From JALTID01 sp027004335 [NCBI: bacterium] (GTDB taxonomy: Bacteria; JALSQH01), in contig JALTID010000046.1 of the NCBI GenBank assembly GCA_027004335.1, positions 1 through 13,726 on the forward strand: 13,726 bases of DNA, read 5' to 3'. The notes below the pieces were generated by a model. That model was not told where the DNA came from. It saw only the letters and a program-made list of their open reading frames with translations, and did no database searches. Each line of letters begins with the position of its first letter. The stretch's first letter is position 1. Position numbers and translations under genes: made by a program. This document shows, in pieces, positions 1-13,726 of this stretch.

Positions 1-526
1 GTATTACAACAAGCCTGAGGCGACAAAAGAGGCAATAGGTGAAGATGGTTGGTTTCATTCTGGTGATATTGGACAGGTAGATGAGGAAGGATATTTTTTT
101 ATAACTGACAGAAAAAAAGATATAATTGTCACCGCAGGAGGGAAAAATATTGCCCCGCAACCAATTGAGAATAAATTAAAACTCAACAGATTTATTGAAC
201 AGGTAGTGGTTATAGGTGATAGAAGACCTTACTGTGTTGCTCTTATACAACCCAATTTTGAGGAGTTGGAGGCCCATGCAGCGGAAAATAATATTCGGTA
301 CAGCGATTTTAAGGAACTCCTTCAGCGGGAGGATGTCAAGAAAATTTTTCAGAATGCGGTGGATGAAGTAAATAAGGATCTCCCTAGATACTCTACGATC
401 AAAAAATTTGAACTTATCAGTGAGGAATTGACTCCTGAGAGTGGTGAGTTAACGCCCACTCTTAAAGTTAAGAGATGGAAAGTGGAGGATAAGTACAGAG
501 ATCTTGTGGAGAAAATGTATAGTTAG
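1..526 (+). CDS. Long-chain acyl-CoA synthetase (AMP-forming), C-terminal part
   Basis: This is the last 174 codons of a gene whose 5' part lies outside the window; the reading frame is open from base 2. The protein belongs to the ANL superfamily, which activates fatty acids as acyl-AMP and then transfers them to coenzyme A. The visible part has the hinge region (GWFHSGDIG, then ITDRKKDII and VTAGGKNIAP) that joins the large and small domains. The C-terminal LTPTLKVKR motif follows, and it carries the lysine needed for adenylation. The LTPTLK ending and the GGKNIAP form are typical of the long-chain fatty acid ligases rather than acetyl-CoA synthetase. An internal ATG at 206 is not the real start, because conserved sequence continues upstream of it. 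A strong terminator follows the stop codon by about 20 bases, so this gene ends its own transcript. The exact acyl chain preference cannot be read from the fragment. Confidence 0.93.
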   Translation, partial: YYNKPEATKEAIGEDGWFHSGDIGQVDEEGYFFITDRKKDIIVTAGGKNIAPQPIENKLKLNRFIEQVVVIGDRRPYCVALIQPNFEELEAHAAENNIRYSDFKELLQREDVKKIFQNAVDEVNKDLPRYSTIKKFELISEELTPESGELTPTLKVKRWKVEDKYRDLVEKMYS

Positions 527-544
527 TGGTCAAGGAATTACTCT

Positions 545-581
545 GCAGAGGCATGACCAGTCATGCCTCTGCTGGTTTTTT
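545..581 (+). terminator. Intrinsic terminator after the acyl-CoA synthetase gene
   Basis: A perfect 12-bp inverted repeat, GCAGAGGCATGA (545-556) and TCATGCCTCTGC (561-572), encloses a 4-base loop, CCAG. TGG and six T residues (576-581) follow. This is a textbook Rho-independent terminator. It separates the upstream lipid gene from the heme operon that begins at 638. Confidence 0.93.
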
Positions 582-609
582 ACCTCCCATTTTAAAATTA
601 TGTTATAAT
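580..609 (+). promoter_or_regulatory. Promoter of the heme operon (extended -10)
   Basis: TGTTATAAT at 601-609 is a perfect extended -10 element (TGnTATAAT). A weak -35 match, TTACCT (580-585), lies 18 bases upstream, where it touches the T-tract of the terminator. Transcription would start near 615-617, leaving a leader of only about 20 bases. That leader carries GAGG (626-629) 8 bases before the ahbC ATG at 638. No operator or riboswitch fits in so short a leader. This is the only convincing promoter I see ahead of the twelve-gene run. Confidence 0.75.
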
Positions 610-637
610 AAATTCCAAAATGTCTGAGGCGTAAAGA

Positions 638-1837
638 ATGATTGATTTCAGCAGACTTGTAACCGGTAAGATTCAGCCCGGAGATGAATTGAGGTATAAG
701 AGACATGGTAAGACCCCTCATTATCTGATTCGTTATGAGAAAGATGCTAAGCCCATTGTAGTATGGAACATGACAAGAGTATGCAATCTCCACTGTATTC
801 ATTGTTACGCTGATGCAAAAGATAAACCCCATCCCCTGGAACTCTCTACTGCTGAAGCAAAAAAAATGATTGATGATCTGGCTCAATTAGGAGTACCTGT
901 TTTGCTCTTCTCCGGTGGTGAACCCTATATGAGGGAGGATCTCTTTGAACTGGGGAAATATGCTCAAGAGAAGGGCATAAGAACTGTGATCTCATCCAAC
1001 GGGACTCTTATTGACGAATCCCTTGCAAGGGGGACCAGGGAAGCTAAATTCAGTTATGTGGGAGTTAGTCTTGATGGAGGTAACCCAGAAGTTAATGACA
1101 AATTCAGAGGTCTGAAGGGTGCCTTTGAGATGGCCCTGAAGGGGATAAGACATCTGAAAGAACACCATGTTAAAGTTGGGCTTCGTTTTACCATAACTGC
1201 ATACAATTATAAGACGATCCCGGAACTTTTTAAGGTGATGGAGAGGGAAGGCATTAACAGGATCTGCTTCTACCATCTGGTTTATTCTGGTAGAGGCAAA
1301 AAGTTAACTAAAGCTGAGCTTTCCCCACAGGAAACAAGAAAGATAATAGATATGATAATTGAAAAGGTTGAGGAAATTGATAAGAAGGGGAATTTGATTG
1401 AGGTTCTTACTGTGGATAACCATGCCGATGGCCCCTACCTCTACTTGAGGATGCTGGAAAAAGATCCTGAAAAAGCTGAGAAAATCTATGAATTACTGAG
1501 GCTAAATGGAGGAAATGGAAGTGGGACCAGAATTGCCAATATTGACTGGCTGGGAAATGTCCACCCCGATCAATTCTGGTGGGATCATACTCTGGGAAAT
1601 GTTAGGGAGAGGCCTTTTAGTGAAATCTGGTATGATGAGAACAACGAGTTTCTTATGAAATTAAAGGATAAAAAGAGATGGGTGAAAGGCAGATGTGCCC
1701 GGTGTAGATTCCTGGATATTTGTGGTGGAAATTTCAGGGCAAGGGCAGAAGCAGTTACAGGAGATCCATGGGCTCCTGATCCAGCGTGCTATTTAACGGA
1801 TGAAGAAATAGGTATGGAAGAAGCGAAATCACAATGA
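638..1837 (+). CDS. ahbC: AhbC: radical SAM didecarboxysiroheme deacetylase (Fe-coproporphyrin III synthase)
   Basis: Radical SAM enzyme of 399 residues. In the siroheme-dependent heme pathway AhbC removes the two acetate side chains of 12,18-didecarboxysiroheme to give Fe-coproporphyrin III. The SAM-binding 4Fe-4S motif is CNLHCIHC (Cys49, Cys53, Cys56), followed by the FSGGEP motif. A C-terminal cysteine set (Cys353, Cys356, Cys362, Cys384) in the CxxCxxxxxCGGNFRARA context marks the SPASM/twitch-type auxiliary cluster region. The N-terminus (SRLVTGKIQPGDELRY, then PIVVWNMTR) and the NVHPDQFWW segment are, from memory, characteristic of AhbC rather than AhbD or NirJ. The start at 638 has GAGG 8 bases upstream and follows the operon promoter. 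The stop overlaps the next start as ATGA (1834-1837). NirJ of heme d1 synthesis is the nearest alternative, but no other heme d1 gene is present. The enzyme is expected to be cytoplasmic and oxygen-sensitive. Confidence 0.88.
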   Translation: MIDFSRLVTGKIQPGDELRYKRHGKTPHYLIRYEKDAKPIVVWNMTRVCNLHCIHCYADAKDKPHPLELSTAEAKKMIDDLAQLGVPVLLFSGGEPYMREDLFELGKYAQEKGIRTVISSNGTLIDESLARGTREAKFSYVGVSLDGGNPEVNDKFRGLKGAFEMALKGIRHLKEHHVKVGLRFTITAYNYKTIPELFKVMEREGINRICFYHLVYSGRGKKLTKAELSPQETRKIIDMIIEKVEEIDKKGNLIEVLTVDNHADGPYLYLRMLEKDPEKAEKIYELLRLNGGNGSGTRIANIDWLGNVHPDQFWWDHTLGNVRERPFSEIWYDENNEFLMKLKDKKRWVKGRCARCRFLDICGGNFRARAEAVTGDPWAPDPACYLTDEEIGMEEAKSQ

Positions 1838-2466
1838 GTTTTTTCCCGATCTACCTCAATTTGAGAGGAAAAAAGGTAGTTGTAGTTGGTGGCGGCAAAG
1901 TTGCTGAACGAAAAGTATTTGATCTATTGCAGGCAGGAAGTGAGATTTATGTTATTTCTCCCTTTTTATCAGAAGGACTCTCCCTTCTCCTCAAAGAGGG
2001 ACAGTTTCAATGGGTGGCAGATTCTTTTTCTGAGAATCTTGTTCCTTCTGATGCTTTTATAGTTATTGCTGCTACCGATGAGGAAGAGATTAATCAGAGG
2101 ATTTATGATTTTGCGAGAGGTTGTGGAATTATGGTGAATGTTGTGGATCAACCGGAACTATGTGATTTTTATCTCCCATCAGTTGTGAAAAAAGGAGATA
2201 TAACGATTGCCATTTCAACAGGAGGAAAGGCTCCATCTTTCTCCAGAGCATTAAGGGAGAAATTAGAAAGAATGCTTCCCGATGATCTGGCAAGGGCTCT
2301 TGAATTTGTTTCTGATATAAGAGATAAGATGAAGGAAAAGGGTATTCCCGATAGGGGGAAAATTCTCCTTGGTTCTGCCAGGGAAATAGTTGAAAGACTC
2401 ACAGGTGGTGAATCATGGAGTGAGACTCGGGAAGAGGTTGAAGGGGAATTGAAGGATGAGGTATAG
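1834..2466 (+). CDS. sirC: Precorrin-2 dehydrogenase, SirC/Met8/CysG N-domain family (possible sirohydrochlorin ferrochelatase)
   Basis: This protein of 210 residues matches the length of the stand-alone dehydrogenase/chelatase domain that forms the N-terminus of CysG. It oxidises precorrin-2 to sirohydrochlorin with NAD+, and in Met8/CysG the same fold also inserts iron to make siroheme. A glycine-rich dinucleotide-binding loop, VVVVGGGKVAERK, occupies residues 15-27. The conserved IAATDEEEIN stretch contains Asp82, equivalent in position to the aspartate needed for catalysis in CysG/Met8. DQPELCDFYLPSVVKKGD and the ISTGGKAPSFSRALRE stretch follow, both hallmarks of the family. Its start overlaps the ahbC stop by 4 bases, and its end overlaps hemA by 11 bases. 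No separate CbiK/SirB chelatase is in the window, so this protein may do both reactions; the sequence alone does not settle that. Confidence 0.9.
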   Translation: MSFFPIYLNLRGKKVVVVGGGKVAERKVFDLLQAGSEIYVISPFLSEGLSLLLKEGQFQWVADSFSENLVPSDAFIVIAATDEEEINQRIYDFARGCGIMVNVVDQPELCDFYLPSVVKKGDITIAISTGGKAPSFSRALREKLERMLPDDLARALEFVSDIRDKMKEKGIPDRGKILLGSAREIVERLTGGESWSETREEVEGELKDEV

Positions 2467-3754
2467 TGTTTTAGGTTTGAATTATAGAACAGCTCCCCCT
2501 GAGATCAGGGGAGCATTTGCTCTTTTGCCTCATTTACGGAAGGAAATTTATAAAAAAACTTCTCCAAGACTTGATGGAGAATTTCTATATCTATCAACCT
2601 GCAACAGAACAGAACTCTACTATGCAGGGAAAAATAAGTACGGATTTGACGATCTTCTGACCCTACTTTTTTCAATTTTTGACACTGTTGTTTCCAGGGA
2701 CTTTTTTTATTTTTTCCAGGATAGAGAAGCTGTGAAGCATCTCTTTGAGGTTATTACAGGTCTTGATTCCATGGTAGTTGGTGAGAAAGAAATTGTCGCA
2801 CAGGTTAAGGAGGCTTATCAGATAGCACATAATTATAAAACTGCTGGAAAGTACCTGGAAAAACTCTTCTCCACGGCCCTTCATGTGAATAAAGATGTTA
2901 GAACAGCATTCCCTGAGCTTTCAAGTCCTATTTCTATACCCTATATTGCAGTGAAGATTTTAAAAGAGAAAATTGGCTCCCTTTTAGAAAATAAATTTCT
3001 TATTATTGGTAGCGGTAGTATGGCTGATCTTGTGGCAAAAAATTTTGTTGATTATGGTGTGAAAAAACTAACTTTTACAAGCAAGCATATTGATAGAGCA
3101 AGAGAGATCGCGAGAAACTGGGGGGCAGAAGCGATAGGGAGGGATTTTGCATTGGAGCATCTGTCAGATTTTGATGGAATTGTTATTGCAACCACAGTTT
3201 CATCTCCAATCATAACTGAGGAGTCTTTTGCATCTTCACCAGGATCACCTATTGTGATAATTGATATTTCAATTCCCAGGGGAGCGAAGTTTTCGAAACC
3301 AATTAAAAACATTGAAGTTATTTATCTGGATGATCTTAAAGGTCTTACCGAAGAAAATAAAAGACAACGGTTAAAAGCTGTGAAGAAGGTAGCAGATGTT
3401 CTTGAAGAAGAATCATTCAGATATATGAGGTGGGTGGCTGAGCAGTATGTGGCTCCAATGATTGAGAAGATGTATTCAAGAAGTGAAGAAATAAGGAAAG
3501 AGATGATGGAGGAGCTTTACAGCAGATATAAGATCCCCCGGGAGATGAAGGAGAAAATTGATTATCAAACATCTCTTCTTGTTAGAAAGTTGATTCATCT
3601 TCATCTTGAGAAAGTAAGGGATGTTACCCGGGGTGCCTGGAGTGACGAGATATATGATCTTATTCAGCTGATTTTTTCTGGATATGAAAGAAAAGCCATT
3701 GATACTGGGGACCAGGGGAAGCAAACTGGCCCTGGCTCAGACAAAAAAGGTTGA
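2456..3754 (+). CDS. hemA: Glutamyl-tRNA reductase
   Basis: This NADPH-dependent enzyme of 432 residues reduces glutamyl-tRNA(Glu) to glutamate-1-semialdehyde, the first committed step of C5-pathway tetrapyrrole synthesis. The N-terminal catalytic domain shows LGLNYRTAPPEIR and the STCNRTELY motif with nucleophile Cys49. GLDSMVVGEKEIVAQVKEAY follows at about residues 102-121. The NADPH-binding loop IIGSGSMA is at 183-190. The helical dimerisation domain near the C-terminus contains TSLLVRKLIHLHLEKVRD. The start overlaps the sirC end by 11 bases and has GGGG (2443-2446) as a ribosome-binding site. The last 23 or so residues, after about position 409, look non-conserved (DTGDQGKQTGPGSDKKG). They are read from bases that encode the conserved start of HemC in another frame. 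Its presence shows that the organism makes 5-aminolevulinate from glutamate; the next enzyme, HemL, is not in the window. Confidence 0.96.
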   Translation: MRYSVLGLNYRTAPPEIRGAFALLPHLRKEIYKKTSPRLDGEFLYLSTCNRTELYYAGKNKYGFDDLLTLLFSIFDTVVSRDFFYFFQDREAVKHLFEVITGLDSMVVGEKEIVAQVKEAYQIAHNYKTAGKYLEKLFSTALHVNKDVRTAFPELSSPISIPYIAVKILKEKIGSLLENKFLIIGSGSMADLVAKNFVDYGVKKLTFTSKHIDRAREIARNWGAEAIGRDFALEHLSDFDGIVIATTVSSPIITEESFASSPGSPIVIIDISIPRGAKFSKPIKNIEVIYLDDLKGLTEENKRQRLKAVKKVADVLEEESFRYMRWVAEQYVAPMIEKMYSRSEEIRKEMMEELYSRYKIPREMKEKIDYQTSLLVRKLIHLHLEKVRDVTRGAWSDEIYDLIQLIFSGYERKAIDTGDQGKQTGPGSDKKG

Positions 3755-4610
3755 AGATTTCCTGAACAGTAGGGGTATTGAGACTTCTGTAAGGATTATC
3801 CATTCAAGAGGTGATCTTGACGGAGAATCCCTCCTCTACGAAATTGGAGGTAAAGGAGTCTTTACAGGTGCACTTGAGGATGCACTTGTAAGGGGCGAAA
3901 TAGATCTTGCCATTCACAGTGCAAAGGATATTCCAAGAGGAATTGCACAGGGAACAGAGATAATAGGGGTGTTACCAAGAGGAAAAGTTGAGGATGTTCT
4001 TATTGTTGGAGATATTGAGAGTGAGGTAATGAGGATCCTGGAAAAGGGAAAAATCGGTACAGGTAGTCTCAGACGGAGGGCTTTTCTAAAGCGTTTTTAC
4101 AACAGTCGTAATATTGTTGATATTCGTGGCAATGTGGATACAAGACTCAGCAAGCTTAAAAAAGGGTATTTTGATGCGCTGATTTTTGCAGCCGCAGCTC
4201 TTGAGAGGCTTGGACAGACATGGAAGGTAAGGTGGTTTTCTTTTGATCCTGCTTCTTTTATTCCTTCACCCAATCAGGGATTCATAGTGGTACAGGCGAG
4301 GAAAGGTAGATTTAACAGTCTTTTCTCTCATGATAACAATGATTGGAAAACCTTTTGGATAGAAAGAAGAGTTGCAAATTTGCTGGAGCTTGATTGTAGG
4401 ACTCCGGTTGGCCTCTACTGTTTTGAAAAAAAAGGGAAACTTTATTTTTACGGAAGTGTAATAACTCCGGATGGTAAAAACTATGTGGATGTCAGGCTGT
4501 CTGAATCTATTGAAAAATGGGAAGATTTCCCGGAAAGAATATATGAGGAATTTTTGAAGAAGGGAGTGGAAAATATACTGGAGATGATAAAAAAATGGCA
4601 GGAGAGGTAA
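3684..4610 (+). CDS. hemC: Hydroxymethylbilane synthase (porphobilinogen deaminase)
   Basis: This protein of 308 residues polymerises four porphobilinogen units on a dipyrromethane cofactor. The N-terminal LILGTRGSKLALAQ motif (residues 6-19) fixes the start within a few codons. HSAKDIP holds the catalytic Asp82. GTGSLRRRAFL and RGNVDTRLSKL supply the substrate-binding arginines. The dipyrromethane-attachment cysteine is Cys238, in ELDCRTPVG. Two positions differ from the common family form: LDC in place of the usual GGC, and NQGFIVVQAR where family members usually have a glutamate before AR. The ATG at 3684 has no clear ribosome-binding site, and TTG at 3699 is an alternative. Either start leaves an overlap of 56-71 bases with hemA, so translation is probably coupled to it. 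The gene ends with a 16-base overlap with the CobA-HemD gene. Confidence 0.95.
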   Translation: MKEKPLILGTRGSKLALAQTKKVEDFLNSRGIETSVRIIHSRGDLDGESLLYEIGGKGVFTGALEDALVRGEIDLAIHSAKDIPRGIAQGTEIIGVLPRGKVEDVLIVGDIESEVMRILEKGKIGTGSLRRRAFLKRFYNSRNIVDIRGNVDTRLSKLKKGYFDALIFAAAALERLGQTWKVRWFSFDPASFIPSPNQGFIVVQARKGRFNSLFSHDNNDWKTFWIERRVANLLELDCRTPVGLYCFEKKGKLYFYGSVITPDGKNYVDVRLSESIEKWEDFPERIYEEFLKKGVENILEMIKKWQER

Positions 4611-6100
4611 TCATAGCAGGGGCAGGTCCAGGAAATCCCCTTTTTATCTCCTATCAACTCCTGCTGGAGATGAAGAAAGCGGATGTTATTGTTCACGATA
4701 GGCTTATTCACAGAGAGATTCTCCGTTTTGCCAATCCTGATGCCGACATCATCTTTGCAGGAAAGGAGGCAAAGCATCATTACTTAAAGCAGTATGAAAT
4801 AAATGATCTTCTCGTAAGTAAAGCAAAGGAAGGGAAAAGAGTTCTCAGAATTCAGGGTGGGGATCCAATTATTTTTGGCAGAACAGGTGAAGAACTTGAG
4901 AAACTTGCAGAGGCTGGGATACCTTTCCGCCTTATACCGGGAATAACTGCAGGGGTGGCTGCACCTGAGTTTGCGGGAATCCCTCTCACCCACAGAAAAG
5001 TCACCTCCATGGTGATGTTTGTTACAGGTCATGAGGATCCGGGAAAGAATTACCCATCTGTGGACTGGGAGTCAGTTGCCAGATTTGGAGGTACTGTTGT
5101 AATTTTTATGGGCGTGGGAAATTTAAGGAACAATATGGAAAGGTTAATTAAACTCGGAAAGTCTCCTGAAGCCCCTGTGGCCATTATTGAAAATGGTGCT
5201 TATTATAATCAAAAGGTAATAACTGGAAAAATTAGGAATATTGCAGACCTTGCAGAGAAAGAAGGGATAAAGCCTCCTGCAATTACGGTTATAGGTGATG
5301 TGGTAAAATATAGGGAGCAGAATGTATGGTTTGAAAAATTACCCTTATATGGCAGGAAAATTGCTATAATGCGTTCAGAAGAAGATATGATGAATCTGGG
5401 AATTAGAGTATGGAATGAAGGAGGAGAAGTGGTTTTCTTCCCTGTTATAAGGTTTGAACCTCTTGATTTTATTGATGAAGTTAAGGAGAAAATATGTTTT
5501 AAAGAGGATAACTCTCATTATCTTGTTTTTACCAGTCCCAGAGGTGTTAAATTCTTTTTTTCAATCTTAAATGAAAATTCTCTTGATGTTAGATGTATAG
5601 GGATGAAAAAAGTTGCAGCAATCGGACCTTCAACAATAGAGGAATTAAAAAAATATGGAATAATCTCTGATCTTGTACCTCCACAATTTGTGGCTGAATC
5701 TCTTGCTGAAGCACTTCTGAAGGAGAAGCCAGCAAAAGTAACGATTCTCAGAGCAAAAGTTGCTCGTGATGCTCTTCCACAGATATTGAGAGAAAATGAG
5801 GTAGAAACAGAGATTATAAGTCTCTACCAGACCATAAAAGTTACCCACAAGCAGAATGAAGTGGATGAAGTAAAAAATTCCGATTATTTTCTTTTTACCA
5901 GTTCTTCAACCTTTAAAAATTTTGCAGAGCATTTTTCATCACTTGATTTTTTGAGAAAAAAAGTGATCTCCATCGGTCCTGTAACTTCTTCTACTATCAA
6001 AGAGTATGGGATTGAACCTCTTGTAGAGGCAGATGAGCACACCATAGAGGGTGTTTATAGAACTTTAATCAGTTATGTGAAAAAAGAAAAAGGGGGTTAA
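4595..6100 (+). CDS. cobA-hemD: Fused uroporphyrinogen-III C-methyltransferase / uroporphyrinogen-III synthase (CobA-HemD)
   Basis: Two-domain protein of 501 residues. The N-terminal domain, about residues 3-245, is the SAM-dependent uroporphyrinogen-III methyltransferase that makes precorrin-2. It shows [10 protein letters not shown] at 6-15, [12 protein letters not shown] at 85-96, and the [21 protein letters not shown] stretch in parts around 114-134. The second domain begins near [11 protein letters not shown] (250-260) and is the HemD uroporphyrinogen-III synthase, a family with low conservation. Its recognisable points are [16 protein letters not shown] and, near the end, [24 protein letters not shown] and EADEHTIEG. 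Such fusions are common in clostridia and in several anaerobic Gram-negative lineages. They put the synthesis of uroporphyrinogen III and its commitment to the siroheme branch on one polypeptide. GGAG (4580-4583) lies 11 bases before the start. Confidence 0.94.
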
Positions 6101-6101
6101 A

Positions 6102-7091
6102 ATGTATTTCCCTATTTTGAGATTGAGAAGATTAAGGATGAAAGATAATTTTAGAAAGATGAGGAGAGAAACGAGGCTTTCCTCTTCTAATTTGATCTAT
6201 CCTGTTTTTATTCAGGATGGTAGGGGTAAAAAAGTTGAGGTTTCTTCGATGCCAGGTATTTACAGATATACGGTGGATAAAGTTGAGGAAGAGATTGAGA
6301 AGGCGATGGAAGCTGGTATCCCTGCAATAATTCTTTTTGGAATCCCTGATGAGAAGGATTCTCAGGCCACTCAGGCATGGGTGGAGGATGGAATAATTCA
6401 AAGGGGTGTTAGGTACATAAAAGATAGGTACCCCGATTTAATCATTATCACAGATGTATGTCTCTGTGAATACACTAATCATGGGCACTGTGGAATCGTG
6501 AAAGATGGAAAGATCCTGAATGATGAAACTCTTGAAATCATAAAAAAGATTGCTCTTTCTCAGGTGGAGGCAGGTGCTGATATGGTGGCACCTTCCGGTA
6601 TGATGGATGGTGCAGTAGGTGCCATAAGGGAGGTTCTTGATGAGTATAACTATGAAGATATACCCATCATGGCGTATGCTGCAAAGTATGCTTCCAGCTT
6701 CTATGGACCTTTCAGAGATGCTGCTGAGTCTGCTCCTGCTTTTGGAGACAGGAGGAGTTACCAGATGGACCCTGCTAACATCAGAGAGGCTATGATGGAG
6801 ATTGAGCTGGATATTCAGGAGGGAGCTGATATTGTCATGGTTAAACCTGCTATGCCATACCTTGATGTTATAAGGGAGGTAAGGAATAGATTTGATTATC
6901 CCCTTGCTGCCTATCAGGTGAGTGGTGAATACTCTATGATAAAAGCTGCGGCGAAATTAGGCTGGCTCGATGAGAAAAGGGCAATGTGGGAGGCAACTCT
7001 CGCCATAAAAAGAGCGGGGGCTGATCTTATCCTCACCTATTTTGCCATTGAACTATCAAAGATGATAAAGGAAGGATGGAATGAAGCTTGA
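6102..7091 (+). CDS. hemB: Porphobilinogen synthase (5-aminolevulinate dehydratase)
   Basis: This enzyme of 329 residues condenses two 5-aminolevulinate molecules to porphobilinogen in the cytoplasm. The start is supported by the typical opening, [12 protein letters not shown], and by AGGGGG (6091-6096) 5 bases upstream. The two Schiff-base lysines are Lys195, in [13 protein letters not shown], and Lys248, in [12 protein letters not shown]. The metal loop [14 protein letters not shown] has Cys120, Cys122 and Cys130, the pattern of zinc-dependent enzymes rather than the aspartate-rich magnesium type. Length and motif order match intact family members. The start is one base past the CobA-HemD stop, and the end overlaps ahbD by 11 bases. 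Confidence 0.97.
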
Positions 7092-8244
7092 TTTTAACAG
7101 AAGTCCTTTAATAGTCTTCTGGGAGGTTACCCAGGCGTGTGATCTTGCATGCAGGCATTGTCGGGCGGTGGCAATGCCTGATCCACATCCCCGGGAATTA
7201 ACAACCAGAGAAGGAAAAAAACTGATCGATAAGATCGCCGAATTTGAAATTGCTCCTATTTTGATATACACCGGGGGAGATCCTCTCAAGAGAGAAGATA
7301 TTTATGAGTTTGTGGCATATGGTGTGGATAAGAGATTAAGAGTTGCAATGAGTCCCAGTGGGACGCCTCTTGTTACGAAGGAGAGATTGAAAAAGCTCTA
7401 TGATTCTGGACTCAGAAGAATATCCTTCAGTCTTGATGGTTCCAACAGATTTATACATGATGCCTTCAGGGGGGTCAATGGTTCTTTTGATTATACAATG
7501 AATGGTGTTAAATGGTCTATAGAGCTGGGTATGGATGTCCAGGTTAATACCACAGTAACAAAGTGGAATTACGGAGATCTTGAAAGTATTGCTAAGTTAC
7601 TTTCAAGTTATGAGATTGTTATGTGGGATGTTTTTTTTCTTGTTCCCACAGGGCGGGCAACTCTCTGGGATATGATCCCTCCTTCACTGGTGGAGGAGGC
7701 TTTTGAAAGATTATATAAGATCTCTCAGAAATACTCTTTTACAATTAAAACCACTGCTGCTACCCATTACAGGAGATTTTTAATAGAAAGGATGGAGTCT
7801 CAGGGTATGGAAATTTCACCTGATAAGGTTAAAGGAGCTTATTCAGATGGAGGAAGCCCCCATTATGCAGGATTTACAACAGGTGTTACTGATGGAAGGG
7901 GTATAATGTTTATTTCCAAGACAGGGGATATTTTTCCCAGTGGATTTTTGCCCATAAGAACCGGTAATGTTAGAGAGGATGACCTCATAAAGGTTTATCA
8001 GGAGCATCAGGTTTTTAAGGACCTGAGAGATCCGGAGAAGCTTAAAGGTAAGTGTGGGGCCTGTGATTTCAAGGAGATATGTGGTGGATCAAGAGCAAGG
8101 GCGTATGGCATAACAGGTGATTATCTTGAGGAGGAACCCTACTGTGTCCATGTTCCAGCAGGGTATGATTTTAAAGACTCTCTTGCTTATAAAATTGAAC
8201 GCGGGAATTATCCCAATGGTCCTGCGGTGAAGAGGGCAATATGA
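7081..8244 (+). CDS. ahbD: AhbD: radical SAM heme synthase (Fe-coproporphyrin III decarboxylase)
   Basis: This radical SAM enzyme of 387 residues is expected to decarboxylate the two propionate side chains of Fe-coproporphyrin III to the vinyl groups of heme b, the last step of the Ahb pathway. The SAM cluster motif CDLACRHC gives Cys20, Cys24 and Cys27 close to the N-terminus, after the [11 protein letters not shown] opening typical of AhbD. YTGGDP follows at the GGEP position. A second cysteine set (Cys325, Cys328, Cys334, Cys355) in [17 protein letters not shown] matches an auxiliary cluster. It mirrors the set in the ahbC product almost residue for residue. The start at 7081 overlaps hemB by 11 bases behind an AAGGAAGG ribosome-binding site, and the end overlaps the siroheme decarboxylase gene as ATGA. 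AhbC and AhbD are paralogues, so the split between them rests on N-terminal features and is slightly less certain than family membership. Confidence 0.87.
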
Positions 8245-8684
8245 AGAAAGAGATCAAAGATAACCTTTTAAAAATTCTTCAGTATGATTTCCCTGTAAGT
8301 ACTACACCGTGGAGAGATATTGGGAAAAAATTGGGGGTCTCTGAAAATGAAGTATTAGAAATGGTGGGGGATCTGAAAAAAGAAGGTATAATAAGGAGAA
8401 TTGGGGCAATTCTTGCAAAAGAAAAACTGGGTTTTAGATCTCTCCTTGTTGCATTAAAAGCTAAAGATAATTGCATGGATGAAGTAGTGACTTATCTAAA
8501 TTCACTTGAAGCAGTTACTCATAATTACCTGAGAGAGGGTGAGTGGAATCTATGGTTTACCTTTTCATATTTTAAAGAAGAAGAGCTTCATGAGCTTAAA
8601 AGCAGGATAGAAGATTTTAGTTGTGTGGAAGACATTTTAATTCTTCCAGCAACAAAAACTTATAAGATTGATGCAAGGTTTTAA
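8241..8684 (+). CDS. ahbB: Siroheme decarboxylase subunit (AhbA/AhbB, Lrp/AsnC-like fold)
   Basis: This protein of 147 residues has the Lrp/AsnC-like architecture of siroheme decarboxylases, which remove two carboxyl groups from the acetate side chains of siroheme. A winged-helix segment spans about residues 22-58 (WRDIGKKLGVSENEVLEMV, then GIIRRIGAILAKEKLGF). The ligand-binding domain follows, with AVTHNYLREG (His94, Tyr96) and EWNLWFTF at about 101-108. That His-x-Tyr...NLWF pattern is the siroheme decarboxylase signature and is absent from Lrp regulators. The protein ends in ILPATKTYKIDARF. Known enzymes of this group are usually AhbA plus AhbB pairs, but only one gene is present here. I cannot firmly say which subunit it is, and the symbol is provisional. 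The start overlaps the ahbD stop as ATGA with GAGG (8232-8235) upstream. A transcription regulator is the less likely reading, given the motif and the context. Confidence 0.85.
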   Translation: MKKEIKDNLLKILQYDFPVSTTPWRDIGKKLGVSENEVLEMVGDLKKEGIIRRIGAILAKEKLGFRSLLVALKAKDNCMDEVVTYLNSLEAVTHNYLREGEWNLWFTFSYFKEEELHELKSRIEDFSCVEDILILPATKTYKIDARF

Positions 8685-8687
8685 AGA

Positions 8688-9101
8688 ATGGGCAGGATTC
8701 TTGCAGTTGATTTTGGAACAAAAAAAATGGGGCTGGCAATGAGTGATCCCATGAAGATCACAGCCCAACCATTTGAGGTTATTGAAGTTATTTCACTAAA
8801 AAAAACTGCAAACAGGATAGCTGAAATTGTAAGAGAGTACCAGGTGGAAGAGGTGATTCTGGGGATGCCCTATACCTCTACCGGAGAGATAAGTCGGACA
8901 GGAGAGGATGTTACTGCTTTTGCTGAGATGTTAAAAAAAAGAATAAATGTGCCTGTTAAGTTTATTGATGAGAGAATGACCACTATGGGTGCGAGGAGGG
9001 TTCTTGATGAAGCGGGGATAAAAAGGAAAAAGCATAAGAAAGTAATTGATAAGATTGCTGCTACATATCTTCTTGAGGGATATTTAAAGAGCTTGAGATG
9101 A
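8688..9101 (+). CDS. ruvX: RuvX/YqgF family nuclease (putative Holliday junction resolvase / pre-16S rRNA nuclease)
   Basis: RNase H-fold protein of 137 residues, the standard length for the family. It opens with ILAVDFGTKKMGLAMSDP, carrying the first acidic residue, Asp8. EVILGMPYTSTGE follows at about 55-67, then FIDERMTTMGARRVL (Asp94, Glu95). It ends with IDKIAATYLLEGYL, where Asp121 is the last acidic position. Bacterial members have been linked both to Holliday junction resolution and to 5' processing of 16S rRNA. The start is 3 bases after the siroheme decarboxylase stop and has only a weak ribosome-binding site, so translation is probably coupled. Its stop overlaps mltG as ATGA. A ruvX-mltG pairing is common in bacteria and unrelated to heme, so this gene marks the change from the heme block to the housekeeping block. 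Confidence 0.94.
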   Translation: MGRILAVDFGTKKMGLAMSDPMKITAQPFEVIEVISLKKTANRIAEIVREYQVEEVILGMPYTSTGEISRTGEDVTAFAEMLKKRINVPVKFIDERMTTMGARRVLDEAGIKRKKHKKVIDKIAATYLLEGYLKSLR

Positions 9102-10108
9102 AGACTTTTCTGAAAGTTAGTGTAGCTTCTGTAGTTTTCCTTTTTTTGCTCTTTGCTGTTACTTTTTTTGTCTCGGTAAATAAAAAGATAGTAACTCCAC
9201 TTGAATTAAAGGTGGAGCGGGGAGAAAATCTCAGAGAAATTCTGAGAAGAATTGGCAAGGAGGAGTCCCTCAACAATCTTGATCTCTGGATTATTTATTA
9301 CTATCTGAGATTGAGTGGTAAGACCAATATAAAAGCTGGTCTTTACATGGGGATCCGGGGGGACAGGATCGTTGATTTTATAAAAAAAATTGTGGCCGGG
9401 AAGGCTCTACTTGTGAAAGTAACGATCCCGGAAGGTTACAACAGTTATCAGATTGCAAAGCAATTGGGGAAAAACGGTGTTTGTGATGAAAAGAATTTTT
9501 TAAAGTTTGCGTTTGACCCTGCTGTGGCTGAGAGGTATGGGATCCCATCTGATAGAGTTGAAGGTTTCCTTTTTCCCGATACATATAAATTCTCTGCGGA
9601 GACGCCTCCTTTGAAAATTATTGATGCGATGATTAAAGATTTCTGGAGACATTATCCTGAAGATTTCAAAAAGAGGGAGAAGAAGATTGGGTGGGACACA
9701 TACAGAGTTGTTATTCTTGCTTCAATTATTCAAAAAGAGGCATTTGCTGCAGATGAAATGCCCCTTATATCCGCAGTGTATCACAACAGATTGAAAAAAC
9801 ACATGCTTCTGCAGGCAGATCCCACCGTGATCTATGGTCTTTTTCCTCATTTTGATGGGAATCTCAGGAAGAAGGATCTGCTTGATAAAGCAAATAGATG
9901 GAATACTTATATTTACAGGGGATTACCTCCGACCCCCATCGGCAGCCCGGGAGTAGATGCAATAAGAACTGCTCTTTACCCTGCTGATGTGGATTATCTC
10001 TACTTTGTTTCAATGGGAAATGGAAGACACTTTTTTTCAAAAACCTACTCGGAGCATATGAAAGCGGTCCTAAAATATCAGATCAAACCAGCAGAGAGGA
10101 GAAAATGA
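9098..10108 (+). CDS. mltG: Endolytic murein transglycosylase MltG (YceG-like)
   Basis: This inner-membrane protein of 336 residues cleaves nascent glycan strands and sets the chain length of peptidoglycan. One N-terminal transmembrane segment (about residues 7-27, VSVASVVFLFLLFAVTFFVSV) anchors it, with the remainder outside the cytoplasmic membrane. A LysM-like region with VTIPEGYNSYQIAKQLG (108-124) and EGFLFPDTYKFS (155-166) precedes the catalytic domain. The likely catalytic glutamate is Glu214, in ASIIQKEA. AVYHNRLKKHMLLQADPTVIYGL and WNTYIYRGLPPTPIGSPG are further strong family motifs. The start overlaps ruvX by 4 bases, and the stop overlaps nagZ by 4. Pairing with nagZ puts cell wall cutting and muropeptide salvage on the same transcript. 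Confidence 0.96.
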   Translation: MKTFLKVSVASVVFLFLLFAVTFFVSVNKKIVTPLELKVERGENLREILRRIGKEESLNNLDLWIIYYYLRLSGKTNIKAGLYMGIRGDRIVDFIKKIVAGKALLVKVTIPEGYNSYQIAKQLGKNGVCDEKNFLKFAFDPAVAERYGIPSDRVEGFLFPDTYKFSAETPPLKIIDAMIKDFWRHYPEDFKKREKKIGWDTYRVVILASIIQKEAFAADEMPLISAVYHNRLKKHMLLQADPTVIYGLFPHFDGNLRKKDLLDKANRWNTYIYRGLPPTPIGSPGVDAIRTALYPADVDYLYFVSMGNGRHFFSKTYSEHMKAVLKYQIKPAERRK

Positions 10109-11094
10109 GCAGAAAAGAACTTGCCGGTAGTGTATTTATTCTGGGTTTTGAAGGAAAAGATGCCGAGAATGTAAAAAAAATTTTTTCAGATTTTCTCCCG
10201 GCAGGATGGATACTTTTCAGGAGAAATATTTGTTCCAGAGAGCAGGTGCGGGATTTATTAGAGGAGATCAATAAACTTTATTCTTCAAGGATACCTCCAC
10301 TTCTTTCAGTAGATCAGGAAGGGGGAAGGGTTAACAGACTGATAGAAGAGTATCCCCCAGCGAGAGAACTTGCTGGGGTTTTTGAAGAAGATATTTCTGA
10401 GTTTGAAAAAATTGTCGGAGAGATGGCCAGAGATGTTAAAGATTATGGTTTCAATCTAAATTTTGCCCCGGTGCTTGATGTCCTGGTGGTGGAAAATGAG
10501 GTAATCGGAGATAGGGCTTTTGGCTCAAATCCAGAAAAGGTTCTGGCTCCTGCCAGAAAATGGATTGAGATTTTCAGGGATTCTGGTGTTGAGTCCTGTG
10601 GAAAACATTTCCCCGGTCATGGAGGAGTCAGGGGAGATTCACATAGAAGCCTCCCGAGGGACAGTGTATCAAGGGAGGAATGGGAGAGGATTTATCTATC
10701 ACCTTTTAAAGAAAATTTCTCGCTTTTGAATTTCCTGATGATAGCTCATATCATTTTTGATTTTCTTGATCCATATCTTCCCACCTCCCTTTCCCCACAG
10801 ACAGGAAAACTGCTTTCCGAATTCGGGTATAGCGGATTCCAGGTCACTGATGATCTATTTATGGGGGCGATAAAGGATAATTTCTCTCCCTCTGAAATTG
10901 TAAATCTTCTTGTTTCTTCTCATGTAGATTTCTGGATTGTTGCTGAAGATACAGATTATATTGAGGCAATTTACTCTTCGCTGTATGATATAATATGGAG
11001 GAGTGATGTTAGGGCGTGGCTTGAGTGGAGAGAAAAAAGAATTGAAAGATTCTGGAAAAAGTTATATAAGCGATTTCCTTCTGGATCTCAATGA
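10105..11094 (+). CDS. nagZ: Beta-N-acetylhexosaminidase NagZ (GH3), muropeptide recycling
   Basis: Glycoside hydrolase family 3 protein of 329 residues with no signal peptide, so cytoplasmic. It removes N-acetylglucosamine from anhydro-muropeptides taken up during wall recycling. Family features in order: LSVDQEGGRVNRL (67-79); NFAPVLDV (119-126); IGDRAFGSNPEKV; KHFPGHG (167-173) with the catalytic pair Asp178/His180 in RGDSHRSLP; and VTDDLFMGAI, where Asp249 is the expected nucleophile. The start has a strong AGAGGAG-type ribosome-binding site at about 10094-10101 and overlaps mltG by 4 bases. The last 20-30 codons are also read in another frame by the next gene. A terminator-like hairpin lies inside the gene at 10355-10383. 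No AmpD, AmpG or AnmK gene is visible nearby. Confidence 0.94.
   Translation: MSRKELAGSVFILGFEGKDAENVKKIFSDFLPAGWILFRRNICSREQVRDLLEEINKLYSSRIPPLLSVDQEGGRVNRLIEEYPPARELAGVFEEDISEFEKIVGEMARDVKDYGFNLNFAPVLDVLVVENEVIGDRAFGSNPEKVLAPARKWIEIFRDSGVESCGKHFPGHGGVRGDSHRSLPRDSVSREEWERIYLSPFKENFSLLNFLMIAHIIFDFLDPYLPTSLSPQTGKLLSEFGYSGFQVTDDLFMGAIKDNFSPSEIVNLLVSSHVDFWIVAEDTDYIEAIYSSLYDIIWRSDVRAWLEWREKRIERFWKKLYKRFPSGSQ
10355..10383 (+). terminator. Terminator-like hairpin inside nagZ (possible attenuator)
   Basis: CCCCAGC (10355-10361) pairs perfectly with GCTGGGG (10372-10378). The stem can be extended inward by a G-U and an A-T pair, leaving a 6-base loop. Five T residues (10379-10383) follow at once. 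By shape this is a Rho-independent terminator, but it lies within the nagZ coding sequence about 250 bases after its start, where translating ribosomes would normally mask it. It may be a chance product of codon choice. If active, it would reduce expression of the nagZ distal part and the downstream phosphotransferase gene when translation lags. Confidence 0.3.
10986..10994 (+). promoter_or_regulatory. Candidate internal promoter (extended -10) ahead of the phosphotransferase gene
   Basis: TGATATAAT is a perfect extended -10 element, the same TGnTATAAT form as the operon promoter, and lies in the last part of nagZ. No good -35 hexamer stands 16-18 bases upstream; TTGAGG at 10961-10966 is 22 bases away. 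Transcription would start near 11001. That would leave a leader of about 40 bases for a TTG start at 11042, or a leaderless message for GTG 11003 or ATG 11006. This is weak evidence on its own. Confidence 0.3.
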
Positions 11095-13570
11095 TAGAGG
11101 GGCTCTTAAAATTGAGTTAACCGGAGGGAAAGGATCTAATCTCGCTTTCCTGGCACAAAAGGGGATAAAGATCCCTGATGCGGTTATACTTACCACTCAT
11201 TTTTTTAAGAAAGTTCTTAATCAAATTGGGGGTGACTATCTTGATTTTTTCTCCGGTGAGCTTTCTGATGATGATATTGAGAAGTTAAGAGAGCAGGTGG
11301 AAAAATTTGATCTTTTCTCCTGCTGCCCTGAGGTGGAGAAGAGTATAATTAGAAGAATTTCCCGATGGGGAATTTATGCTGTCAGAAGTTCCTTTGGTAT
11401 AGAAGATACTGAGGAATTCTCTCTGGCAGGTATAGGTGAATCTGTAACAGGAATTATCTCACCCGAAGAGATGGAAAGATCAGTAAAAAAAGTACTTTTT
11501 TCTTTTTTTTCCTCTACGATTTTAAAATATCTTGATTCGCTGGGGGCCGGTGAACTTTCTTATCCGGCGGTGATCATTCAAAAATTTATTGCAGGGGAAT
11601 ACTCCGGGGTCATTTTTACCTCCCAGAATGGTTATTCTATAGTTGAGTTTCTTCCTGGAACAGCCATTCCTGTGGTTCAGGGGAAATATGAGCCTGTAAG
11701 ATTGAAACTGCTTGAAGATGGGTGTAAGGGACAGTGCATAAAAGTGCCTGAGGTTACCAGAGGCCTTATCTTCGACGGGGGAAACGGTTTTGTGGAAAAG
11801 GTTTTCCAGAAAGTTAAATTGCCACCCAGGGTAGCAAAAAAGATCTGTGAAATGGGTAAGAAAATTACAGAAGTATATGGGTCACCAAGGGATGTAGAGT
11901 GGACTGTTTATAAAGGTGAGCTTTATATTCTCCAGGCGAGAGCGGTTACCCACAGAGAAAAGGCGGAGAATTTTCACTGGTCCAGAGTGCTTGGAGAGGA
12001 ATTCTGGTCGGGGGTAGTCAGTCCTATGATGTATTCTCTGGTAGGAAAGGCTATTGAAATTTCAATGATAAAAGCTCCTGTTGAGGTATTGCTAAAAGGG
12101 GATATTGATGTTAAAAATATGCCCGGCATAGGGCTGTTTTATGAGCATATTTACATAAATCTTGATCTTCTCAGGGAAGCTTTCCGGATTATTCCAAGAT
12201 GGGTTCTAACCGATGAACTTTTGAGAATGTTTCCTGAAAATATGAGGGAGGAGATAAAAAATCAAAGCAAAACTGTTCCCCTGGAACTTATTCCAGCTTT
12301 TTCAAGATTTCTTATGGCAGGCTTCCCATGGTTTTTTACTTCCAACTATAAAAAATTTTACAGGTTTGTGAAAGAACATTTAGAGGAACGGCCTCTTCCG
12401 AAAAAAAGGAGTTCACTGGAAGAAATATTGAAGGAAATAGAAAGGATTGAGGAAGAACTTAAAAAGTTTCTTTCCATTGTGGTCTGGGGGGTAACATACG
12501 CATATATAAGTGTTCCTTTTGTTGATAGAATTTTTTCCATGATGGTAGGAGAAGAAAATGCGAAAAAGTATGGATATCTCCTTTTCACAAACTTAAAGGG
12601 AGACAGGAATATTGGATTTCTGCGAGATATGCTCAGGTTAAAAAAGATGATGCCCCCCGGTATTACTGAAGACAATGATGTTGGTGAAATAAAAGAAAAA
12701 TTCCCTGATTTTTTTAATGAGCTTGAAAGCTTTCTGAAAAAGTATGGGCATCGTTCCGGAGAGAGGGATCTGTTTTTTGTAAGATGGTGGGAGGACCCCT
12801 TTCTGGTTTTGAAGATAATTGAATCCTCCATGGTCTCAGATATTGAGGAGCTAGGGATCAGGGAAGCGTGGAGAAGGGTAAAAAGGAATCTCGTGAAAGA
12901 TAGGGTCAGAATCAAAAAAGTTTATCTTCCAGAGCTTATGATCTTCCTCTGGCTCGCCAGAACCTACCTTACCATGAGGGAAAATATGAGATTCTATGCA
13001 GATATTTATCTCAGGGACATGAGAGTACTTCTTCTAAATGCGGGAGAAATTTTATATAAAAAGCGGATTCTTGATTCCGCAGAAGAGGTCTTCTTTCTGA
13101 GTTTTGATGAATTAAAAGAAGCGCTTAATATTCCTGGTGAAAAATTAAAGAAAGAGACCGCTGAGAGAAAAAAGCGGTTCCTTGAGAGGAGAAATGCTCC
13201 TGACTATATAGTGGGTGGGGAGGCTCTTTCTATACCGGGGAATGGAGACCACCTTGTGGGGATTACAATAAGTCCCGGTTTAGCTGAGGGAAGGGTAAGA
13301 GTTATCAGAGGAATTGAAGATTTCCTTGAAGTGAAGGAGGGGGAGATAATTGTGATGAGTAATCTGGATCCCGGATGGAGTTCCCTTGTAGGGAAAGTTG
13401 CAGGTGCAGTTTTTGAAGTGGGAGGGCTTTTGTCCCATGGAGCAATTATTGCTAGGGAGTTTGGTATCCCTGCTATAGCAGGCATAAAAAACGCTGCTCA
13501 AATACTAAGAACAGGGGAGAAGGTCATTTTAGATGCCACGGCAGGTACTGTGACCAGATTTAAATCTTAA
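11006..13570 (+). CDS. PEP-synthase-like / rifampicin-phosphotransferase-like dikinase of unknown substrate
   Basis: This protein of about 854 residues has three parts. An ATP-grasp domain (about 35-315) has TGGKGSN with Lys42, VRSSFGIED with Arg127, and a closing RDVEW...ILQAR segment. A mostly helical middle region (about 320-745) holds SGVVSPMMYSL, YGHRSGERDL near 580 and the TMRENMRF segment with Arg658/Glu659. A C-terminal swivelling phosphohistidine domain (about 752-850) has GGLLSHGAIIAREFGIPAI with the presumed phospho-acceptor His811. The TIM-barrel domain that binds PEP/pyruvate in true PEP synthase and PPDK is absent, so it should not be called ppsA. The order and length match rifampicin phosphotransferase, which transfers the beta-phosphate of ATP through a histidine to its substrate. 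The natural substrate here is unknown. The start is uncertain: ATG 11006 with GGAGG 4 bases upstream, GTG 11003, or TTG 11042 with GGAG 11 bases upstream. All of them overlap nagZ. Confidence 0.85.
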   Translation: MLGRGLSGEKKELKDSGKSYISDFLLDLNDRGALKIELTGGKGSNLAFLAQKGIKIPDAVILTTHFFKKVLNQIGGDYLDFFSGELSDDDIEKLREQVEKFDLFSCCPEVEKSIIRRISRWGIYAVRSSFGIEDTEEFSLAGIGESVTGIISPEEMERSVKKVLFSFFSSTILKYLDSLGAGELSYPAVIIQKFIAGEYSGVIFTSQNGYSIVEFLPGTAIPVVQGKYEPVRLKLLEDGCKGQCIKVPEVTRGLIFDGGNGFVEKVFQKVKLPPRVAKKICEMGKKITEVYGSPRDVEWTVYKGELYILQARAVTHREKAENFHWSRVLGEEFWSGVVSPMMYSLVGKAIEISMIKAPVEVLLKGDIDVKNMPGIGLFYEHIYINLDLLREAFRIIPRWVLTDELLRMFPENMREEIKNQSKTVPLELIPAFSRFLMAGFPWFFTSNYKKFYRFVKEHLEERPLPKKRSSLEEILKEIERIEEELKKFLSIVVWGVTYAYISVPFVDRIFSMMVGEENAKKYGYLLFTNLKGDRNIGFLRDMLRLKKMMPPGITEDNDVGEIKEKFPDFFNELESFLKKYGHRSGERDLFFVRWWEDPFLVLKIIESSMVSDIEELGIREAWRRVKRNLVKDRVRIKKVYLPELMIFLWLARTYLTMRENMRFYADIYLRDMRVLLLNAGEILYKKRILDSAEEVFFLSFDELKEALNIPGEKLKKETAERKKRFLERRNAPDYIVGGEALSIPGNGDHLVGITISPGLAEGRVRVIRGIEDFLEVKEGEIIVMSNLDPGWSSLVGKVAGAVFEVGGLLSHGAIIAREFGIPAIAGIKNAAQILRTGEKVILDATAGTVTRFKS

Positions 13571-13726
13571 ACGTATCCTTTTTCTACGAACCAATTTATT
13601 GCATCTTTAAGGGTTTCTTTTAGAGGTCTGCTTCTATGTCCCAGTTCTCTCCTCGCTTTTGAGTCATCGTAGTACCAGTAGTAGCCTGCCATAAGTCCTG
13701 TACCATAATCCACCGGTGGGTTTTTC
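13567..13726 (-). CDS. NAD-dependent epimerase/dehydratase (extended SDR), C-terminal fragment
   Basis: Only the last 52 codons lie in the window, read on the reverse strand from its right edge. The translated end contains GLMAGYYWYYDDSKARRELG followed by HRSRPLKETLKDAINWFVEKGYV. The SKARRELG...RPLKETLKDAINWF pattern is the usual C-terminus of extended short-chain dehydrogenases such as dihydroflavonol-4-reductase-like and hopanoid-associated (HpnA-type) sugar epimerases. The nucleotide-binding and catalytic parts are outside the window, so the substrate cannot be given. The gene converges on the phosphotransferase gene. Its stop codon (bases 13567-13569 on the + strand) overlaps that gene's stop (13568-13570), leaving no space between them. 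Confidence 0.8.
   Translation of the reverse strand, partial: KNPPVDYGTGLMAGYYWYYDDSKARRELGHRSRPLKETLKDAINWFVEKGYV

What the first reader, a model, noticed from the sequence alone, without database searches (positions are those of the whole stretch)
11006..13570. Rifampicin-phosphotransferase-type dikinase with unknown substrate, next to muropeptide recycling genes
The protein has the ATP-grasp and phosphohistidine domains of PEP synthase but not its PEP/pyruvate barrel. A helical middle domain of about 430 residues stands in the place used by rifampicin phosphotransferase to bind its substrate. Automatic annotation would probably call it PEP synthase or 'PEP/pyruvate-binding protein', which would mislead. 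Its place after mltG and nagZ, with overlapping translation, raises the possibility that it phosphorylates a wall-derived sugar or another small molecule. An antibiotic-inactivating role is another possibility. This is the best candidate here for an undescribed activity.
Basis: partly seen in the sequence, partly recalled or inferred. Interest (0 to 1): 0.6.

Follow-up and report, generated by a model that had tools for sequence, protein, structure and literature searches.

The report
Three-domain small-molecule kinase, acceptor unknown
This gene encodes a large enzyme built like the kinase that inactivates rifampicin, but its substrate-binding half is different, so it probably puts a phosphate on some other, still unknown small molecule; such relatives are known to be numerous and mostly unstudied.

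Summary
Window 11003/11006-13570 (+) is an intact 855-residue protein: ATP-grasp domain, a middle region of about 430 residues, C-terminal phosphohistidine swivel domain, no PEP/pyruvate barrel detected. The second half of the middle region (about 506-745) is homologous to rifampin phosphotransferase (RPH), and the eight catalytic residues compared are kept or conservatively replaced. The first half (324-505), where RPH holds rifampicin, shows no detectable RPH similarity but resembles several uncharacterised relatives. The RPH family score is 200.7 bits against a cut-off of 999. Rifamycin inactivation is unlikely and PEP synthesis all but excluded; the genome has its own PPDK.

The wall-recycling idea is weakened. 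nagZ-dikinase is kept in the only other genome held of this phylum, but mltG is not part of that unit, and 12 of 13 neighbouring gene pairs are kept anyway. Of 25 other homologue loci, only that genome's has nagZ nearby. Both genomes carry AnmK, the usual wall-sugar kinase; NagA and MurQ were not found above cut-off, so the fate of GlcNAc is open.

Best reading: an RPH-type dikinase (ATP to AMP plus Pi, via phospho-His812) that phosphorylates a hydroxyl of a probably hydrophobic acceptor. New member of a known kind.

The parts
11003..13570 (+). RPH-type dikinase gene, 855 aa from GTG 11003 (854 aa from the likelier ATG 11006)
11114..11971 (+). ATP-grasp domain (residues 38-323); K43, R128, S147, E299 match RPH-Lm K22, R117, T136, E297
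   Evidence: Pfam PPDK_N E 1.9e-30; alignments
11972..12517 (+). first half of the middle region (residues 324-505), the place of the rifampicin contacts in RPH; not detectably RPH-like; probable acceptor pocket (inferred)
   Evidence: hhalign 0.3% against RPH, up to 90.6% against uncharacterised clades
12518..13237 (+). second half of the middle region (residues 506-745), phosphotransfer half with R659-E660 and R663
   Evidence: hhalign 97.1% against RPH; PDB profile hits
13334..13546 (+). phosphohistidine swivel domain (residues 778-848) with H812
   Evidence: Pfam PEP-utilizers E 5.9e-21; H812 aligned to the catalytic His
10105..11094 (+). nagZ-like family 3 glycoside hydrolase gene, overlapping the dikinase start; neighbour, part of the system not shown
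   Evidence: PF00933 E 3.2e-45; NF003740 170.8 bits, under its cut-off of 207

Best explanation
It is a single-chain small-molecule dikinase of the rifampin-phosphotransferase type, from an uncharacterised clade. Proposed cycle: the ATP-grasp domain binds ATP; H812 of the swivel domain takes the beta-phosphate, with AMP and Pi released; the swivel domain moves to the middle region; R659, E660 and R663 position phospho-H812 against a hydroxyl of the bound acceptor, which leaves phosphorylated. The acceptor is neither pyruvate nor rifampicin and is probably a hydrophobic or aromatic alcohol or phenol. Shown here: the domains, the conserved catalytic residues, the shared phosphotransfer half and the divergent acceptor half. 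Inferred: the turnover itself (from RPH and HpeHI) and the hydrophobic character of the acceptor.
For: PDB best hits are RPH-Lm entries, E about 7e-49. The middle region alone, as a 3-row profile, finds only RPH-Lm below E 0.1 (about 1e-11); a 19-row profile finds RPH-Lm at 6e-35, next hit 0.07. hhalign: residues 506-745 match RPH at 97.1%, 324-505 at 0.3%; 324-505 match 5 of 13 groups of uncharacterised homologues at 87-91%. Among 25 aligned proteins: K43 25, R128 25, S/T at 147 25, E299 25, R659 22, E660 23, R/K at 663 22, H812 25. Foldseek of the model of 318-855 ranks six RPH-Lm entries first, E 9e-13 to 2e-10. 36 of 49 invariant positions of 324-505 are hydrophobic, against 14 of 30 of 506-750. 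PMC4844700 reports that its distant clade Q keeps Arg-Glu and Lys without most rifampicin contacts, and that a clade N protein gave no rifampin resistance.
Against: No activity was found in print for this clade in the searches made. Both structure models are weak: mean pLDDT 48.4 and 58.6, and the RPH superposition has rmsd 7.9-13.1 A, in a range of Z that helical models can reach by common arrangement. Hydrophobic invariant positions may be core packing, and other family members have hydrophobic stretches there too. The first half also fails to match several other homologue groups (6 of 13 at 20% or less), so its divergence from RPH is not unusual within the family. Neighbours of the broader homologues show no common pathway. 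The T/S of the T/SXXGGXXXH swivel motif is F804 here.
Confidence: 0.6

Rival explanations
1. Wall-sugar dikinase: it phosphorylates GlcNAc, MurNAc or another product of NagZ in the cytoplasm.
For: nagZ-dikinase order and overlap are kept in both genomes held of the phylum. NagA and MurQ were not found above cut-off in either, so the fate of GlcNAc is unassigned.
Against: nagZ was found in 1 of 25 other homologue loci. Gene order around is generally conserved, so adjacency is weak evidence. AnmK is present in both genomes. A ROK sugar kinase is present in both. The invariant positions of the presumed acceptor half are mostly hydrophobic.
Confidence: 0.12
2. Phenolic-compound dikinase like HpeHI, CreHI or PpsAB, starting the breakdown of an aromatic compound.
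For: Same three functional parts; [quoted passage not shown] A hydrophobic pocket would fit.
Against: Single chain here, two chains there. No aromatic-breakdown gene was recognised beside it in the window or sister locus. Its sequence was not compared with HpeH, CreH or PpsA.
Confidence: 0.15
3. Antibiotic-inactivating kinase for a rifamycin or another antibiotic.
For: RPH is the closest solved relative.
Against: 200.7 bits against 999 for the RPH family; the rifampicin-contacting half is not detectably similar; Q336/Q337 replaced by E332/E333.
Confidence: 0.07
4. Activating ligase like PigC or RedH, in which the phosphate drives condensation of two molecules.
For: PigC and RedH share the domain plan and score 166 and 180 bits.
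Against: Far below their cut-offs of 1300 and 1350; no biosynthetic cluster recognised beside it.
Confidence: 0.05
5. True PEP synthase or PPDK.
For: ATP-grasp and swivel domains; several database models with that name match in part.
Against: No barrel by Pfam or hhalign; TIGR01418 152.7 bits against 739.75; a complete PPDK gene lies on contig C102 of the same genome.
Confidence: 0.01

Closest known systems
Rifampin phosphotransferase RPH-Lm (PDB 5FBS, 5FBT, 5HV1); NCBIfam NF041857
   Same: Domain order ATP-grasp, middle, swivel; catalytic Lys, Arg, Glu, Arg-Glu and His; phosphotransfer half of the middle domain homologous
   Different: Acceptor half not detectably similar; Q336/Q337 replaced by E332/E333, K670 by R663, T136 by S147; 200.7 bits against cut-off 999
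HpeHI, CreHI, PpsAB two-component phenolic dikinases (PMC12167813)
   Same: Same three functional parts, by the paper's description of HpeHI as a two-component homologue of RPH
   Different: One chain here, two there; sequences not compared here
PEP synthase and PPDK
   Same: ATP-grasp and swivel domains
   Different: No PEP/pyruvate barrel here; two before the catalytic His stands Leu810, not the regulatory Thr given for PEP synthase in PMC12167813
Uncharacterised RPH-superfamily clades of PMC4844700
   Same: Clade Q keeps Arg-Glu and Lys and lacks most rifampicin-specific blocks, as here apart from Lys to Arg
   Different: Which lettered clade this protein belongs to was not tested

Membership tests
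Rifampin phosphotransferase (RPH) | Score above the NCBIfam equivalog cut-off NF041857 | tested here: not met
   200.7 bits against 999; another genome's protein L019 reaches 1500.6
Rifampin phosphotransferase (RPH) | Arg-Glu and Lys of block 9 and the catalytic His | tested here: met
   R659-E660, R663 (Lys to Arg) and H812
Rifampin phosphotransferase (RPH) | Rifampicin-contacting half of the binding domain, with the Gln of block 1 | tested here: not met
   residues 324-505 against 20 RPH middle regions 0.3%; E332/E333 in place of Q336/Q337
Rifampin phosphotransferase (RPH) | Phosphorylates rifampicin | not testable with these tools
   needs an enzyme assay
RPH superfamily (fused ATP-grasp, middle and swivel domains, no barrel) | Domain order and a homologous phosphotransfer half of the middle domain | tested here: met
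   agrees
PEP synthase / PPDK | PEP/pyruvate-binding barrel | tested here: not met
   no Pfam barrel hit; hhalign 0.3% against the genome's own PPDK barrel
PEP synthase / PPDK | Score above TIGR01418 or TIGR01828 cut-off | tested here: not met
   152.7 against 739.75 and 37.5 against 843.45
Two-component phenolic dikinases | ATP-grasp domain on a separate polypeptide | tested here: not met
   one 855-aa chain
Two-component phenolic dikinases | Sequence similarity of the acceptor half to HpeH, CreH or PpsA | not tested
   their sequences were not fetched
PigC / RedH ligases | Score above NF052631 or NF052632 cut-off | tested here: not met
   166.2 against 1300 and 179.7 against 1350
NagZ-coupled recycling kinase | Linkage to nagZ across homologues | tested here: inconclusive
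   2 of 2 genomes of the phylum, 0 of the 24 other homologue loci, in a region where gene order is conserved in general

The most novel reading that the evidence does not exclude
The enzyme is a dikinase for GlcNAc or another NagZ product that uses phosphohistidine chemistry to recycle wall sugar in a phylum that has NagZ and AnmK but in which neither NagA nor MurQ was found above cut-off: a new branch of wall recycling.
Probability: 0.08. Interest if true: 0.7.

Novelty: new member of a known kind. Interest (0 to 1): 0.3.

Why it matters
RPH-type dikinases form a large family in which few substrates are proven. This one shows where the family varies: the phosphotransfer half is constant and the acceptor half is not. 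That suggests a simple way to tell which database entries called 'PEP synthase' are likely to act on something else. If the acceptor were a NagZ product, it would add a step to wall recycling in an uncultured phylum.

Tried and rejected
Structure prediction did not settle the pocket: mean pLDDT 48.4 for the whole protein and 58.6 for residues 318-855, both from three-row alignments. A viral-contig scan to deepen the alignment gave three weak relatives, not used for folding. tblastn against plasmids gave 287 records, all under 60% identity; with the middle region alone, 4 records.

Pfam of ten selected neighbours in five loci and gene lists for 16 of the 25 homologue loci, read by eye, showed no common pathway. 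The glucosaminidase-domain gene near the Dadabacteria relative was not counted as linkage, because a gene on the other strand lies between. PADLOC gave no hit, PHROGs one partial 'kinase' match, E 4.2e-16, Rfam nothing at gathering score. Promoter-like sites in 8000-13726 were 15 against 10.5 expected; terminator-like sites 16 against 6.3, none listed just after the dikinase stop. ABC-exporter rows (Z below 8) were taken as common helical arrangements.

Rows dropped: the 615-aa homologue L026 was left out of the tree and residue counts. 18 of those 25 sequences entered A5, 19 of 25 entered A7. Of 29 RPH matches the 20 with a stored locus were used, the first as its copy L019. The tree warns of long branches and unlike letter make-up, the window's included.

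Literature: six searches were answered. Seen: of PMC4844700 the abstract, parts 1 and 2 of 3 of the Results, and the Results section on the superfamily; of PMC12167813 the abstract, the structure section and the Discussion; of PMC13099321 the abstract and list of sections. All else is search listing. In one search none of the 10 papers listed, of 73 found, held 'NagZ'; the other 63 were not seen.
Full report
What is there. The window is bases 1-13726 of contig C46 of a 1.5 Mb genome bin, 80% complete. It carries a long run of + strand genes: the end of an acyl-CoA ligase gene, an alternative haem pathway (ahbC, a siroheme-synthase-type gene, hemA, hemC, a fused cobA-hemD, hemB, an AhbD-like radical SAM gene, an AhbA-like gene), then ruvX, mltG, nagZ and the dikinase (the siroheme-type gene, hemA, hemB and hemC were named by eye from the translations). 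The dikinase ORF runs 11003-13570; the likelier start is ATG 11006, with GGAGG upstream. From there it overlaps nagZ by 89 bases. The last 156 bases encode on the other strand a peptide that resembles, by eye, the C-terminal end of the sister genome's epimerase.

Domains. Pfam finds the ATP-grasp domain at 38-323 and the swivel domain at 778-848, and nothing between. The middle region was tested apart. A three-row profile of residues 324-745 (window, sister genome, Dadabacteria) finds RPH-Lm in the PDB at E about 1e-11 and nothing else below 0.1. A 19-row profile gives RPH-Lm at 6e-35, next hit 0.07. hhalign against 20 RPH middle regions gives 96.7%, E 3.7e-10; against the barrel of the genome's own PPDK 0.3%, E 0.21; against an unrelated control, the hemD protein, 0.2%.

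The match covers only one half. Split at residue 505, the second half matches RPH at 97.1% and the first half at 0.3%, the level of the controls. The first half matches 5 of 13 groups of uncharacterised homologues at 87-91%, best L059 (E 1.3e-6 over 175 columns), two at 60-73%, and six at 20% or less; the second half matches 12 of 13 groups above 80%. In RPH-Lm the rifampicin contacts named in PMC4844700 lie at 336-479, with Met673 the exception, and RPH 499 aligns with about window residue 506. So the phosphotransfer machinery is shared, and the acceptor site is not detectably the same.

Catalytic residues. By the alignments, K43, R128, S147 and E299 stand for RPH-Lm K22, R117, T136 and E297; R659-E660 for R666-E667; R663 for K670; H812 for H825. 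Among the 25 proteins: K43 25, R128 25, S or T at 147 25, E299 25, R659 22, E660 23, R or K at 663 22, H812 25. The departures in the middle region are in L024, L025 and L056. Q336/Q337 of RPH become E332/E333; the second is Glu in 22 of 25, Asp in two and Gln only in the RPH (counted by eye on the printed alignment).

Family. NCBIfam gives RPH 200.7 bits against 999 and PEP synthase 152.7 against 739.75. An RPH fetched from another genome (L019) scores 1500.6, so the test can succeed. The maximum-likelihood tree joins window, sister genome and Dadabacteria with support 100/99; their wider grouping with L021, L051, L054 and L059 stays under the tree's own threshold (94/82, 94/87, 88/91), and the tree warns of long branches.

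Structure. Both AlphaFold models are weak. Foldseek with the model of 318-855 puts six RPH-Lm entries first, E 9e-13 to 2e-10, followed by pyruvate kinase, enzyme I and PPDK entries and weak ABC-exporter matches; for most of these non-RPH enzymes the aligned part is the swivel domain. VIA-align gives RPH-Lm Z 9.7-14.8 with rmsd 7.9-13.1 A, and its notes warn that helical models can reach such Z by common arrangement. I use this only as agreement with the profile results.

Neighbourhood. Two genomes of this phylum are held and both have the gene. In the sister genome nagZ, the dikinase and the convergent epimerase keep their order, with a 20-base nagZ overlap. mltG is elsewhere: it ends a block of 11 genes, from the acyl-CoA ligase to mltG, collinear with the window; no nagZ was found on that contig, which ends 155 bases after mltG. 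The break in gene order thus falls exactly between mltG and nagZ. Twelve of the 13 adjacent pairs of the window are kept, so the nagZ pairing is weak evidence of shared function. Of the 25 homologue loci examined, nagZ was found only in the sister genome's; some loci are short, the smallest 6,180 bases. The Dadabacteria relative lies beside a helicase-like gene and, across a gene on the other strand, a glucosaminidase-domain gene.

Wall recycling. AnmK is present in both genomes (E 2e-105 and 1.6e-102); the window genome's copy passes an NCBIfam cut-off (438.2 against 387). Each genome has one ROK kinase, under every NCBIfam cut-off shown and closest to the glucokinase subfamily. NagA and MurQ were not found above cut-off in either; the sister genome has weak partial matches of 21.3 and 33.2 bits. 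An APH-family match sits exactly at the cut-off in the window's genome and none was found in the sister genome. The kinase slot for anhydroMurNAc is thus filled; the fate of GlcNAc is open. The window's genome is only 80% complete, so absences there are weak; the sister genome is 97% complete.

How it most likely works. By analogy with RPH (PMC4844700) and HpeHI (PMC12167813), the beta-phosphate of ATP goes to H812, AMP and Pi leave, the swivel domain crosses to the middle region, and R659/E660/R663 place the phosphate on a hydroxyl. This cycle is inferred. The acceptor is inferred to be hydrophobic: 36 of 49 invariant positions of 324-505 are hydrophobic against 14 of 30 of 506-750, and a hydrophobic stretch lies at 489-507. 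Both could also reflect core packing, and several other family members have such a stretch.

Novelty. PMC4844700 already describes a large superfamily whose distant clade Q keeps Arg-Glu and Lys but lacks most rifampicin-specific blocks, and reports that a clade N protein gave no rifampin resistance. This protein fits that picture. It is a new member of a known kind with an unknown substrate, not a new kind of system.

Noticed in passing
window 8241-8684: Only one siroheme-decarboxylase-type subunit (AhbA-like, 136.5 bits against cut-off 140) was recognised in the haem cluster of the window. That the enzyme usually has two subunits, AhbA and AhbB, is recalled, not from a call.
   Followed up: no
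window 7081-8244: The second radical SAM gene scores over the TIGR04053 cut-off (466 against 395) but under the heme b synthase AhbD cut-off (352.3 against 500), so its name is open.
   Followed up: no
window 2-10108 and L095 626-11715: An 11-gene block from the acyl-CoA ligase through the haem genes to ruvX and mltG is collinear in the two genomes.
   Followed up: yes
L088 (G000 C119) and L089 (G001 C59): AnmK is present although NagA and MurQ were not found above cut-off in either genome: wall recycling with an unassigned continuation.
   Followed up: partly
L096 727-2803 (Deinococcus radiodurans plasmid pCP1): A split dikinase, a 'PEP-utilizing enzyme' gene followed by a 'PEP/pyruvate-binding domain' gene, lies about 2.7 kb from Qat anti-phage genes, with a transposase and a recombinase gene between.
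   Followed up: no
L051 8714-12237: A related dikinase gene directly follows, on the same strand, a gene for a DUF7065-DUF7064 protein; no paper in the library holds either domain name.
   Followed up: no
L068-L087 and the order of G052: RPH-like proteins match in 27 of 60 sampled genomes of that order: 24 matches at 69-100% identity to L019 and five at 45-46%; two genomes have two matches.
   Followed up: no
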